NCBI RefSeq assembly: GCF_900215515.1
Contig: NZ_OBEI01000002.1
Location: 310,001 to 374,000, forward strand
Length of the DNA stretch: 64,000 bases
Direction of reading: 5' to 3'
Source: Persephonella hydrogeniphila
Lineage (GTDB): Bacteria > Aquificota > Aquificia > Aquificales > Hydrogenothermaceae
The translations under genes were made by a program, and so were the position numbers. Shown here piece by piece: positions 2,915 through 43,204 of this stretch; positions within the stretch are counted from its first letter, which is position 1; every line of letters begins with the position of its first letter. The notes under the pieces were generated by a model. That model did no database searches and was not told the origin of the DNA. It saw only the letters and a program-made list of their open reading frames with translations.

Positions 2915-4537
2915 ATGAATATAGAAAATAAGCTAAAATATTCTAAAAAACGGAGCAGTTCTATTTTGAGATACAAACCGTTTCTGATCTCGCTGTTTGT
3001 TTTTATCACAGCTTTTATGGTTTTCTCTGCAAATATAGGAGGCTTATCAATATACTCCCTTGATGAAGCAAAAAACTCAGAATGTGCAAGGGAGATGCTC
3101 GAAAGGGGAGATTTTATTGTTCCTACATTTAATTATGAACTGAGAACAGATAAACCTCCTGTGCATTACTACTTTATGATTGTTGCGTACAAGCTTTTTG
3201 GAGTTAATGAGTTCTCTGCAAGATTTTTTTCATCAGTTTTTGGGGCTTTGACAGTTCTGATAACATTTTTGTTTGCACAGAAATATCTTGGGAAAAGGGA
3301 GGCTTTTTTATCATTTATAGCCTTGATATCTTCTCTCCATTTTTCTATACAGTTCCATATGGCTGTTCCTGATCCTTATCTTATTTTCTGGATAAATGCT
3401 GCTCTTTTTTCCTTTTATATAGGTTTTAAAGAGAAAAAAGGAGTTTTTATTTACCTATTCTATATTTTTATGGGACTTGGAGTGCTTACGAAGGGACCGG
3501 TTGCTGTTGTTTTGCCTTCAGGAATTATTCTTCTTTATCTTATTTTTACCAGAAATCTTACTGTAGAAAACTTAAAATTCCTGCGGGTGCTCTCTGGAAT
3601 AGCTGTACTTCTGATAGTCTCTCTCCCGTGGTATATAGCTGTTTATCTGAAAACAGAGGGAAAGTGGGTGCAGGAGTTTATATTCAAACATAATATACAC
3701 AGATTTTCGCAGCCTATGGAAGGTCACGGAGGGATATTTCTTTTAACATTTTTATTTGTTTTTGTAGGTATGCTTCCTTTCTCTGTTTTTATATTTCAGG
3801 CTTTGAAAAAAGTATGGGAAGATAGAAAAAATGATTTTTTACTTTTTCTTATGATTTTTGCAGGGGTTTACACACTGTTTTTTGCAGTATCAAAAACAAA
3901 ACTACCTAATTACACAGTTCCTGTGTACCCTTCTCTCGCTATTATCATAGGATACTATCTGAGCAGGATTCATACATCAAAGATCTCTTCTCTGATAGTT
4001 AGTGTTATTTTGTATATCCTGATAAGTATTGGTGTTATAGCTGGACTTTATTTTGGTATAAAAAATGAACCGGCCATATCGGACCTTTCTTATCTCTCTA
4101 TATGGTTTATCTTTCTTGTTTTTGGTGGGATATTTGCCCTTATGTTCTTACTGAAAAAAAACTATGTTATGGCTATCTTATCTCTTTCAGTTTTTTCTAT
4201 TTTTACCGGTTTTATATTTTTTTACAAGGCATTTCCTCCTGTTGATAAGAGAAATCCTGTGATGCAGATGCTTCCTTTAATAGAAAAAGATAAACCTGTT
4301 AGATACTACAGGAATTTTAATCCGGCTTTTGTTTTTTATCTCAGGAGACATATAAGTCCGGTTGAGAAAGCAGAGATAAAGAGCTTTCTTTCATCTAAAG
4401 AGAAGGTTTACATACTTACAAGGAAAAGATATCTGAAGGATTTTAAAAATATAGAAAATGCTGTTATTCTGAAAGTTGTAAAGGATCTGTTTGAAAGCAA
4501 AGTATCTGCCCTTGTTTCAAACAGGAGAGAAAGATGA
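2915..4537 (+). CDS. GT39-family membrane glycosyltransferase (ArnT/PMT-like)
   Basis: A 540-residue polytopic membrane protein of the dolichyl-phosphate-mannose-protein mannosyltransferase/ArnT superfamily, which uses polyprenyl-phosphate sugars as donors at the outer face of the inner membrane. The catalytic acidic pair follows the first helix (SLDEAKNSECARE, D50-E51), then RTDKPPVHYY (K80-P82), both GT39 hallmarks. About eleven further hydrophobic segments follow, ending in a soluble tail. No clear ribosome site precedes the ATG at 2915. It overlaps the next gene by 4 bases (ATGA). The acceptor, lipid A or protein, cannot be told. Confidence 0.8.
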   Translation: MNIENKLKYSKKRSSSILRYKPFLISLFVFITAFMVFSANIGGLSIYSLDEAKNSECAREMLERGDFIVPTFNYELRTDKPPVHYYFMIVAYKLFGVNEFSARFFSSVFGALTVLITFLFAQKYLGKREAFLSFIALISSLHFSIQFHMAVPDPYLIFWINAALFSFYIGFKEKKGVFIYLFYIFMGLGVLTKGPVAVVLPSGIILLYLIFTRNLTVENLKFLRVLSGIAVLLIVSLPWYIAVYLKTEGKWVQEFIFKHNIHRFSQPMEGHGGIFLLTFLFVFVGMLPFSVFIFQALKKVWEDRKNDFLLFLMIFAGVYTLFFAVSKTKLPNYTVPVYPSLAIIIGYYLSRIHTSKISSLIVSVILYILISIGVIAGLYFGIKNEPAISDLSYLSIWFIFLVFGGIFALMFLLKKNYVMAILSLSVFSIFTGFIFFYKAFPPVDKRNPVMQMLPLIEKDKPVRYYRNFNPAFVFYLRRHISPVEKAEIKSFLSSKEKVYILTRKRYLKDFKNIENAVILKVVKDLFESKVSALVSNRRER

Positions 4538-40783: not shown

Positions 40784-42616
40784 TTAGAAAAATCTATTTA
40801 CTGAAAACGATATTTCGTATCTGTTTCTGTAGAAAACTCTATCCAGTAAAAGCTTTATCTGTAATGCACTGTCTGTTTGAACTGGATAGTTCGCTATAAA
40901 CTTTGTATTATATCCGTAGAAACTTTTATTTCCTAATGCATAGAAGGGATATAAGGAGAGTAATATTTTTAAGTCTTTGAATTTTTTCAGAAACACTGTT
41001 TCTGTCCCCAATTTAATACGGGAGTTTCCTGCGTTTTCAACTCCTATCTGTCCTGCTGTTTTTAACATCCCTGAAATGAAATAATTCCCTTCTTTTCCAT
41101 AAGTAACTCCCATTCCAAAATCTACACCAAAAAACTGTTCTCTTTTCTGTTCTATCCAATCTCTTTTGATACCTGCAGACACCATCCAGGATACAGGCTT
41201 AAATATGACATCTCTCAGAGCATAGGATTTTATGCTTATGAATGAAAGTTGGTTTAGGACTGTTTTATTTCTGTCTGGTATATTCCTTACCTCAAAGTAA
41301 GGAAATAAAACTTCAGAACCGAATATATAGCCTTCATCTTTATCTTCAAGACCGTGGTAAGCTCCCCTGTAAAGAACAGATATAAATATTTTTCCGTTTT
41401 CTGTTCCTGTCAGAAAGGATATTAACTGGCTTTTGTGGGCTTCATCTGGTGGTGTTTTTTTCTCAGGTTTGTAATGGAAAATGTATCTGACTCTACTTCT
41501 GGCTTTTAAAAGTGTGAGAAACTTTTTTCTGTACTCTTTGTATGGCATCCTTTCTTTAATAGAGTAATACATAAAGATAAGTTTTGATAGCTCTAATATT
41601 TGTGCTTTTTTTCTGATAGATAGATTTTTTTTAAGTATATTCTCAGGGGTTGTTTTGAAGCTGGCTATATCTTTTGATAAGGTGATATCTTTTTCTGTAA
41701 TATCCGGATTTATTTTAATAAACTCTTTTATTCTGCTGGTTGCTGATGGGCGGTAGTATACAGATTTTATTAATCCTTTTTTCTTTAGAAATCTAATGGT
41801 GTCTACAGGGATAGTCCAGTAGTTAAAATGGTAGACAGATTTAAGTTCAGGATTGGCTATATCTATTAAGTGTAAAATTTGGTATGAACAGTTTTTATTG
41901 AAGAAGTAGTAGTATGTATATCTGTCTTTTAGCTCCCATAAATGAAACGTTAAAAGCTTTATTTTTTCTTTAGGTAAATCCAGTGAGTACTCCCATAGAT
42001 CTCTACTTTCCAGATTGTTGTACTCAAATATCTTTTTGTAATAAGGGAAGACAGAGAAAAAGCCTTTATACAGTCCAAAAATACCTTTTAGATAGTATTT
42101 GAAACCTTCAGATTGATCTGCATGGGCTGCGTAATTAACTGCATATCCTAAAAGCCGGCTTTTTACCGGAGGATCTATTCGTATGAAAGTATGTCCATAC
42201 ATAGAGGCAGGACTGTTTATGTATGCGTCAGAAAAGATTATTGATACAGAGTAAGGATTTATCTCTTTGATAAACTCCTTAAACTTTTTGCATTCAGGCT
42301 TTGCGTTTAATTTTATTTTTACTTTTTTACTTAAAAATAAATATCTGGCTGGGTATTTACATACTGGATGATCATCCCCTTTTTCTGTAGAGGTTTCAAA
42401 TGCTTTTATTGTAGCTGCCAGTTCTTTTAACGGATTTTTGTTTCCATCCTGAGAAATAAAAAAGGCAGGATCGTCAATTTCACTTTTACCGTCCTTGTAA
42501 TGCAGTAAACTGAGCCATTCTGCTGAGTGTGATATTTTATTCAGATCCTGAGAGAATGAGATACCTATTGTAAAAAGACAGGCTAAAAAGCCTGTCCTTA
42601 TGATTTTTTGAACCAA
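40784..42616 (-). CDS. DUF4105/Lnb-type periplasmic protein with barrel-like C-terminal domain
   Basis: A 610-residue secreted protein with a signal peptide (FSQ, about residue 23). The DUF4105 core includes FSDAYINSPASMYGHTFIRID with His142 and FFNKNCSYQILHL with Cys243; together these suggest a papain/NlpC-like thiol active site. A Bdellovibrio member of this family has been reported as a lipoprotein N-acyltransferase (Lnb). The C-terminal third is rich in aromatic strands and ends in Phe-Phe, like an outer-membrane barrel. It follows the DUF3015 gene by 3 bases. A transcription terminator lies in its codons 7-15. Acyltransferase activity is an inference. Confidence 0.75.
   Translation of the reverse strand: MVQKIIRTGFLACLFTIGISFSQDLNKISHSAEWLSLLHYKDGKSEIDDPAFFISQDGNKNPLKELAATIKAFETSTEKGDDHPVCKYPARYLFLSKKVKIKLNAKPECKKFKEFIKEINPYSVSIIFSDAYINSPASMYGHTFIRIDPPVKSRLLGYAVNYAAHADQSEGFKYYLKGIFGLYKGFFSVFPYYKKIFEYNNLESRDLWEYSLDLPKEKIKLLTFHLWELKDRYTYYYFFNKNCSYQILHLIDIANPELKSVYHFNYWTIPVDTIRFLKKKGLIKSVYYRPSATSRIKEFIKINPDITEKDITLSKDIASFKTTPENILKKNLSIRKKAQILELSKLIFMYYSIKERMPYKEYRKKFLTLLKARSRVRYIFHYKPEKKTPPDEAHKSQLISFLTGTENGKIFISVLYRGAYHGLEDKDEGYIFGSEVLFPYFEVRNIPDRNKTVLNQLSFISIKSYALRDVIFKPVSWMVSAGIKRDWIEQKREQFFGVDFGMGVTYGKEGNYFISGMLKTAGQIGVENAGNSRIKLGTETVFLKKFKDLKILLSLYPFYALGNKSFYGYNTKFIANYPVQTDSALQIKLLLDRVFYRNRYEISFSVNRFF
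42571..42596 (-). terminator. Intrinsic terminator inside the start of the DUF4105 gene
   Basis: Minus strand GACAGGCT, loop TTTT, AGCCTGTC, then TTTTTA: a perfect 8-bp stem plus T-run. It lies 20 bases into the DUF4105 coding sequence and 24 bases after the DUF3015 stop, so it should end most DUF3015 transcripts and limit DUF4105 expression. Confidence 0.75.
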
Positions 42617-42619
42617 CTA

Positions 42620-43084
42620 TTATACTGTTTGTGCGATTTCTACAATTTTGTCTATTACATCAGCTGATTGAACTTTTTCTGATGGATAAATTTTGTCAAA
42701 ATTCTCCTGCAGTCTTGCGTAAAATTCAGCTTTCTTATCTTCTGGTATGTTCATAAGCTCTGCAACTGTATCGAGAGTTTCTCCATTTCCAGATGCGATG
42801 TCAGAGGCCAGCTGATCCATGTTTTCTGAAACGAATTTGAACAGTCTGTCGTTTTTTACAACTTTTTGAGGCTGTTTACACTCGAGAGTACCTGTTGTGA
42901 TACCAAATGTCTGGTTTCCAAATGTACCGTTTGTTGTTACCGCAAGTATTTCAAAAAGTGTTGAGTCAGGTGCGTCTTTAAATATCATATAACCAAGACC
43001 ACAACCTGTGTTTTCTTTGTTAACAGCAAAAGATGGGATTGAAAGAATAGCTACGCCTAATGCTGCTGCCACAAATTTTTTCAT
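42620..43084 (-). CDS. DUF3015-family periplasmic protein
   Basis: A 154-residue protein with a signal peptide (SIPSFA, about residue 20). The mature part has the DUF3015 signs: NTGCGLGYMIF, TNGTFGNQTFGITTGTLECKQP, two conserved Cys that may pair, and a helical C-terminal half. Function is unknown. DUF3015 and DUF4105 genes are also neighbours in pseudomonads, which points to a shared envelope task. Confidence 0.8.
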   Translation of the reverse strand: MKKFVAAALGVAILSIPSFAVNKENTGCGLGYMIFKDAPDSTLFEILAVTTNGTFGNQTFGITTGTLECKQPQKVVKNDRLFKFVSENMDQLASDIASGNGETLDTVAELMNIPEDKKAEFYARLQENFDKIYPSEKVQSADVIDKIVEIAQTV

Positions 43085-43204
43085 ATTCCTAACCTCCCTT
43101 AAGTTATTTTAATATAAGTATACGTATTTATTTTTCGTCTGTGAAGCTATTTTTTTTAATTTTAGTGTAGAATATTTAACCAGACTAAAAAAGGGAGGTA
43201 TTCT

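What the first reader, a model, noticed from the sequence alone, without database searches (positions are those of the whole stretch)
42571..43084. Terminator hidden in the signal-peptide codons of the DUF4105 gene
A perfect 8-bp hairpin with a T-run follows the DUF3015 gene but lies inside codons 7-15 of the next gene. The same bases encode the hydrophobic core RTGFLACLF of a signal peptide. Ribosomes starting on the DUF4105 message would cover the hairpin, so readthrough may depend on translation: an attenuator-like way to fix a high DUF3015 to DUF4105 ratio or to regulate DUF4105.
Basis: partly seen in the sequence, partly recalled or inferred. Interest (0 to 1): 0.65.

Follow-up and report, generated by a model that had tools for sequence, protein, structure and literature searches.

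The report
mRNA hairpin inside signal-peptide codons
In Persephonella-like hot-vent bacteria, the stretch of message that encodes the start of one secreted protein (DUF4105/Lnb-like) also folds into an RNA hairpin that has been kept by selection, probably to cap or end the message of the gene before it (DUF3015) so that far more of that first protein is made; the principle is known from other operons, but the place and the repeated reinvention are unusual.

Summary
On the minus strand, 20-23 nt after the DUF3015 stop, a perfect 8-bp hairpin (11 pairs with its A/U edge) followed by UUUUU lies in codons 7-14 of the TTG-started DUF4105 (Lnb_N) gene. All seven related Persephonella-type genomes with this gene pair keep a hairpin on the same in-frame codons. 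Three stem pairs have changed on both sides, the rare Ala codon GCC is always used, and within the signal peptide only the stem codons (G9, A12, C13) and the start are invariant. Aquificaceae have different hairpins, 24-38 nt after the DUF3015 stop, in the same gene's signal codons. The hairpins beat synonymous-codon nulls in 11 of 14 junctions; relatives of DUF4105 without DUF3015 upstream mostly lack one.

The T-run is not conserved: it is absent in half of Persephonella and all Aquificaceae, and is no more than hydrophobic codons give. So the conserved element is a hairpin, not necessarily a terminator. Best reading: an intercistronic 3'-end hairpin that raises DUF3015 over DUF4105, acting as a leaky intrinsic terminator in this species and mainly as a decay barrier elsewhere. 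Attenuation by ribosomes starting on DUF4105 is unlikely. Coding-embedded protective hairpins are known in E. coli operons.

The parts
43117..43145 (-). promoter-like site TTCACA-17-TATACT upstream of DUF3015; the only plausible promoter for both genes in the scan
   Evidence: 10 of 12 matches; no minus-strand site listed between 43116 and 42617
43093..43098 (-). GGGAGG Shine-Dalgarno of DUF3015, 8 nt before ATG
   Evidence: read directly
42620..43084 (-). DUF3015 gene (154 aa, secreted, PF11220)
   Evidence: E 4e-41
42614..42616 (-). TTG start of DUF4105, 3 nt after the DUF3015 stop codon, no SD; in-frame starts of relatives are weak TTGs that often overlap the DUF3015 end
42574..42599 (-). 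conserved RNA hairpin: 8-bp perfect stem 42577-42596 plus G-U, A-U, A-U edge pairs; loop UUUU
42572..42576 (-). UUUUU run after the stem (makes the site terminator-like in this species; not conserved in all relatives)
42548..42616 (-). signal-peptide codons MVQKIIRTGFLACLFTIGISFSQ, which contain the hairpin; only M1, G9, A12, C13 invariant in the genus alignment
40784..42616 (-). DUF4105 gene: DUF7843 + Lnb_N (PF13387) + DUF7840, 610 aa, Lnb/permuted NlpC-P60-like
   Evidence: PMC12994826

Best explanation
The element is an intercistronic 3'-end hairpin for the DUF3015 part of a two-gene message, embedded in the signal-peptide codons of the second gene because the two genes abut. Transcription starts at the DUF3015 promoter. 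In the window's species a fraction of polymerases stops at hairpin+UUUUU, a leaky intrinsic terminator partly masked by the ribosome finishing DUF3015 23 nt upstream, and the rest read through to DUF4105. In all relatives, with or without the U run, the hairpin blocks 3'-to-5' exonucleases after the DUF4105 part is cut, so the DUF3015 segment outlives it. Both routes, plus the weak TTG start of DUF4105, give much DUF3015 and little DUF4105. Shown: gene order, hairpin, its conservation, covariation and synonymous-site constraint. Inferred: termination, decay protection, expression ratio.
For: The hairpin sits at the same in-frame place in all 8 genus genomes with the pair. 98% of stem cells are paired, three pairs changed on both sides; covariation score reached by 2 of 500 shuffles, though these ignore relatedness. 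It exceeds synonymous-codon nulls at p <= 0.02 in 11 of 14 junctions. Ala codon GCC is always used, though a minority codon in these genes (4-39%; in G027 it is the only GCC of 24 Ala codons). Six Aquificaceae junctions carry hairpins of quite different sequence in the same gene's signal codons, 24-38 nt after the DUF3015 stop, with two more seen in fragments. Two of three gammaproteobacterial pairs have an ordinary hairpin plus U-rich tail between the genes and the third has a strong hairpin there. DUF4105 relatives without DUF3015 upstream mostly lack a strong hairpin (1 of 7 at p < 0.05 versus 11 of 14; Fisher p = 0.016). The junction ranks 2nd of 136 abutting gene pairs conserved between G000 and G017 for embedded-hairpin strength. 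In E. coli, 17 of 26 hairpins protecting an upstream operon gene lie inside the next gene's coding sequence and have conserved wobble sites (PMC5927463).
Against: No RNA data exist here for any of these species. One Aquificaceae junction (G044) has no hairpin; G021 and G056 do not beat the synonymous null. G033 has a hairpin in its DUF4105 signal codons without DUF3015 upstream. Related sequences are not independent, so covariation and shuffle counts overstate significance. DUF4105 translation would melt the hairpin whenever a ribosome passes, which limits protection to untranslated or cut messages.
Confidence: 0.6

Rival explanations
1. Purely a leaky intrinsic terminator: hairpin plus U run ends most transcripts; DUF4105 is made from readthrough only; decay protection plays no part.
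For: The sequence resembles the strict terminators of this genome (hairpin, 5 U). G022 and G023/G017 also have U-rich tails. In Pseudoalteromonas and Salinivibrio the junction has an ordinary terminator. No separate promoter for DUF4105 was found.
Against: U run missing in G027/G028, G019, G021 and all Aquificaceae while the hairpin stays; where present it is no richer than the amino acids predict (P 0.10-0.21).
Confidence: 0.25
2. Translation-gated attenuator (first reader, amended): the lead ribosome finishing DUF3015 and re-initiating 3 nt later at TTG opens the hairpin, so DUF4105 is transcribed only when translation keeps up with RNA polymerase.
For: Stop-to-hairpin spacers of 23, 24, 24, 12, 9 and 9 nt fall in the range where ribosomes partly repress terminators (PMC4824070). 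TTG abuts or overlaps the DUF3015 stop.
Against: No leader peptide and no alternative RNA fold seen. Terminators within the first 100 bp of a gene are not repressed by that gene's own ribosomes in E. coli. Half of the relatives lack a terminator to gate. Aquificaceae hairpins sit 24-38 nt away, most of them past the masking range.
Confidence: 0.12
3. Side effect of protein coding: G-x-x-A-C is a required signal-peptide or lipobox motif and the palindrome is incidental.
For: G9, A12 and C13 are invariant at the protein level in the genus; xLAC/xIAC resembles a lipobox.
Against: Synonymous codons for the same protein fold far worse; GCC is always chosen; covarying pairs use non-identical residues (T/A8, F/S/L10, L/I/F11); Aquificaceae proteins lack the motif but have hairpins; only about 5 hydrophobic residues lie between R7 and C13, and the hydrophobic stretch continues past C13.
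Confidence: 0.08
4. The hairpin acts on DUF4105 translation or export, slowing the ribosome on the signal peptide or damping initiation at TTG.
For: It begins about 17 nt after the TTG, at the front edge of an initiating ribosome. G033 has a hairpin in its signal codons without DUF3015 upstream.
Against: In Gammaproteobacteria the hairpin at this junction is outside the coding sequence; its distance from the start varies; DUF4105 genes elsewhere do without it.
Confidence: 0.08

Closest known systems
Operon-internal protective RNA structures embedded in the downstream coding sequence (Dar and Sorek 2018, E. coli; PMC5927463)
   Same: Hairpin lies in the coding region of the downstream gene, follows the upstream gene's stop, is conserved in relatives, has constrained synonymous sites, and is expected to raise the upstream gene.
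   Different: Here it lies much closer to the start (about 17 nt in, against 107 +/- 56 nt), in signal-peptide codons, bears a U tract in some species, and has been re-formed with unrelated sequences in another family. No RNA ends were measured.
malE-malF intercistronic hairpin (segmental mRNA stability, as described in PMC5927463)
   Same: Hairpin between a gene needed in large amount and the next gene of the same message.
   Different: malE-malF is intergenic; here it overlaps coding sequence.
Intrinsic (Rho-independent) terminator near a stop codon, efficiency tuned by the terminating ribosome (tR2 reporter study, PMC4824070)
   Same: Hairpin + U run 20-23 nt after a stop codon in the window's species.
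   Different: U run not conserved; the site is also coding for the next gene; termination not measured.
Ribosome-mediated attenuators (pyrBI and amino-acid operon leaders, as cited in PMC4824070)
   Same: A terminator-like hairpin near translated codons.
   Different: No leader peptide, sensing codons or competing hairpin; sits between two structural genes.

Membership tests
Intrinsic (Rho-independent) terminator | Stable GC-containing hairpin | tested here: met
   -17.2 kcal/mol at 37 C, -7.3 at 70 C
Intrinsic (Rho-independent) terminator | U tract directly after the stem | tested here: met
   UUUUU in G000; also G022 and G023/G017; not met in G027/G028, G019, G021 or Aquificaceae
Intrinsic (Rho-independent) terminator | Transcript 3' ends / termination in vitro | not testable with these tools
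   no RNA data for this organism
[quoted passage not shown]
Coding-embedded protective operon hairpin (Dar and Sorek type) | Conserved structure with constrained synonymous sites | tested here: met
Coding-embedded protective operon hairpin (Dar and Sorek type) | Upstream segment more stable than downstream; 3' end at the hairpin | not testable with these tools
   needs RNA-seq after transcription arrest and Term-seq
Coding-embedded protective operon hairpin (Dar and Sorek type) | No intrinsic-terminator signature (their selection rule excluded hairpin + U tract) | tested here: not met
   G000 has UUUUU, so in this species it would have been filtered out as a terminator; relatives without the U tract would pass
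Ribosome-mediated attenuator | Leader peptide and mutually exclusive antiterminator fold | tested here: not met
   only one stable fold in the 66-nt region; the upstream gene is DUF3015, not a leader
Ribosome-mediated attenuator | Readthrough depends on translation | not testable with these tools
   would need reporters
Lipoprotein signal peptide (lipobox) | n-region, h-region of ordinary length, L-x-[GA]-C | tested here: inconclusive
   x-A-C present, but -3 is F/S/L and only about 5 residues separate R7 from C13; read by eye, no predictor run

The most novel reading that the evidence does not exclude
A family of overlapped terminator/signal-peptide switches: the lead ribosome of the upstream secreted protein sets, through the 9-24 nt stop-to-hairpin spacing, how often polymerase passes a terminator written in the next gene's signal-peptide codons. 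The U-rich codons of hydrophobic signal peptides supply the U tract for free, so Aquificota could have re-evolved the device at several operons (a similar hairpin lies in the signal codons after alaS).
Probability: 0.12. Interest if true: 0.6.

Novelty: new member of a known kind. Interest (0 to 1): 0.42.

Why it matters
It is a clean case of one stretch of DNA under two codes at once: a cleavable signal peptide and a conserved RNA hairpin. Within the genus the RNA seems to dictate which signal-peptide residues are invariant, which warns against reading such residues as protein function. It also suggests that compact thermophile genomes fold their intercistronic 3'-end signals into the next gene's flexible signal-peptide codons, where the U-rich hydrophobic codons make a terminator easy to evolve. 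This can be checked genome-wide with Term-seq.

Tried and rejected
(a) Repeat or known RNA family: Rfam gives only one sub-threshold plus-strand match, E 0.27; rejected. (b) Chance: rejected by relatives and synonymous nulls, although a single-genome count alone would not exclude it. (c) A later true start of DUF4105 that leaves the hairpin intergenic: rejected in this species, no ATG/GTG/TTG between the TTG and the DUF7843 domain. (d) DUF4105 as the only lipoprotein N-acyltransferase: rejected, Lnt is present in all 14 genomes of the genus. (e) Viral relatives of DUF3015: none. (f) Further pairs in the class of the odd MAG L024/G136: none. (g) Gammaproteobacterial chromosomes could not be sampled beyond three plasmid-borne copies.

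Full report
What was checked. The sequence and ORFs confirm the anatomy on the minus strand: DUF3015 gene 43084-42620 (PF11220, E 4e-41) and, 3 nt after its TAA, a TTG-started ORF 42616-40784 with DUF7843, Lnb_N (PF13387) and DUF7840. Between them and overlapping the second ORF is AAG-GACAGGCU-UUUU-AGCCUGUC-UUUUUAC. It folds at -17.2 kcal/mol with z -4.15 and stays folded at 70 C (-7.3 kcal/mol). There is no other usable start before the DUF7843 domain, so the hairpin bases are codons 7-14 of the signal peptide.

Close relatives. Seven other genomes of the genus have the pair; named database copies are called Persephonella sp.. Every one has a hairpin on exactly the same codons: (A/G)C(A/G)-GG(C/T)-NNN-NNN-GCC-TG(C/T). 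The proteins are only 49-65% identical, and inside the signal peptide just M1, G9, A12 and C13 are invariant, of which G9, A12 and C13 are stem codons. Counting pairs on six distinct sequences: 98% of cells paired, three of eight pairs changed on both sides (G-C/A-U twice; U-A/A-U/C-G next to the loop), covariation score reached by 2 of 500 shuffles, and no slid register close to it. These controls do not remove relatedness. The Ala codon in the 3' arm is always GCC, whose share in these genes is 4-39%; in G027 it is the only GCC among 24 Ala codons.

Distant relatives. In Aquificaceae, DUF3015 is again followed at once by DUF4105, usually with a weak TTG or GTG start at or inside the DUF3015 end. 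Six junctions have strong hairpins in the signal codons, but of different sequence and encoding different residues (ACCCCCGCCGAAGGCGGGGGU, ACCCCCUCCCAAGGAGGGGGU, GGGGACUUCCCUUUUCGGGAGUCCCC and so on), starting 24-38 nt after the stop; two further fragments, G099 and G100, carry the same kind. One, G044, has none. A MAG outside the phylum (L024) has the hairpin across the DUF4105 ATG. In three gammaproteobacterial plasmids the two genes are separated by 45 nt to some 100 nt and the hairpin is ordinary and intergenic: with a U-rich tail in Salinivibrio and Pseudoalteromonas, with a weaker UGUUU tail in Photobacterium. So a hairpin at this junction is the rule, and in Aquificota it has been absorbed into the next gene.

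Is it selected as RNA? Drawing synonymous codons from each gene's own usage, the observed hairpin is stronger at p <= 0.02 in 11 of 14 junctions (G000 p = 0.002; not in G021, G056, G044). For DUF4105 genes with no DUF3015 upstream, one of seven passes (G033); Fisher p = 0.016. In the home genome, 5 of 178 abutting gene pairs reach a similar z, and among 136 junctions conserved with G017 this one ranks second. The phenomenon is therefore uncommon but not unique in the genome.

Is it a terminator? In this species it looks like one: it is one of 25 strict hairpin+T sites on 382 kb and the only one near a same-strand gene start. But the U tract is present only in G000, G022 and G023/G017, and is no richer than the encoded Leu/Phe/Ile codons tend to be (P 0.21, 0.10, 0.11); G027/G028, G019, G021 and all Aquificaceae lack it. 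What selection keeps is the hairpin. A hairpin without a U tract at this position is what Dar and Sorek described in E. coli: of 26 structures that protect an upstream operon gene from 3'-to-5' decay, 17 lie inside the next gene's coding sequence, with conserved wobble positions (PMC5927463).

Mechanism. Shown: gene order, hairpin, conservation, covariation, synonymous constraint, spacers of 9-24 nt (genus) or 24-38 nt (Aquificaceae). Inferred: (1) both genes are read from the promoter-like site at 43145-43117; (2) the hairpin gives the DUF3015 message a 3' end, by partial termination where a U tract exists and by blocking exonucleases otherwise; (3) the outcome is DUF3015 in excess, reinforced by its good ribosome site against the bare TTG of DUF4105. 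The ribosome finishing DUF3015 could mask the hairpin in part, since that paper finds repression that fades over about 30 nt; this is the only version of translation dependence that the geometry allows, and it is untested.

What the genes do. DUF4105 proteins include Lnb, a lipoprotein N-acyltransferase of Bacteroides, related to permuted NlpC/P60 enzymes (PMC12994826). Here the Lnb_N motif residues GHTF and NCSYQ are present, but all 14 genomes of the genus also encode Lnt, so the role is open. The function of DUF3015 is unknown; it is always next to DUF4105 in the Aquificota copies examined.

Verdict.

Noticed in passing
home contig G000:C2 about 133,230-133,310, minus strand (outside the window); G017:C2 near 112,650: The gene after alaS starts with a signal peptide (MYLNIRRAVLLIVLLSTGAYSQ) whose codons also hold a compact hairpin (AAGGAGGGCUGUAUUACUGAUAGUCCUCCUUU). 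G017 has a hairpin of different sequence at the same place: a second case like the finding.
   Followed up: partly
G000:C2 263,190 (plus) and 181,034 (minus), outside the window: Strong conserved hairpins in the first codons of lpxA (after a thioredoxin gene) and of tsaD (after a carboxyl-terminal protease gene); stronger than the synonymous null in two species.
   Followed up: partly
window about 23,719 (plus): Hairpin in the first codons of the undecaprenyl diphosphate synthase gene, conserved in G017, but over highly conserved protein sequence (HVAIIMDGNGRWA), so it may be only coding constraint.
   Followed up: no
L009 (G033), 3326-3372, minus strand: A DUF4105 gene without DUF3015, downstream of three tRNAs and of an unidentified reading frame that may be a gene remnant, with its own hairpin AAGGAAGGGUUUUAUUCCUUCCUU in the signal codons.
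   Followed up: partly
G044, G056, G101, G102 junctions (L025, L027, L030, L029): DUF4105 appears to start at a TTG inside the last codons of DUF3015 (a conserved AUUG) in several Aquificaceae: overlapping genes with a weak start, suggesting translational coupling.
   Followed up: partly
G000:C5:37116-38291 against window 40784-42616: All 14 genomes of the genus carry a good Lnt, and eight also carry the full-length Lnb-like DUF4105 gene; why some keep both is unclear.
   Followed up: no
L042/L039 (G099:C110): The DUF3015 gene is split by an apparent frameshift in this draft genome, possibly an assembly error.
   Followed up: no
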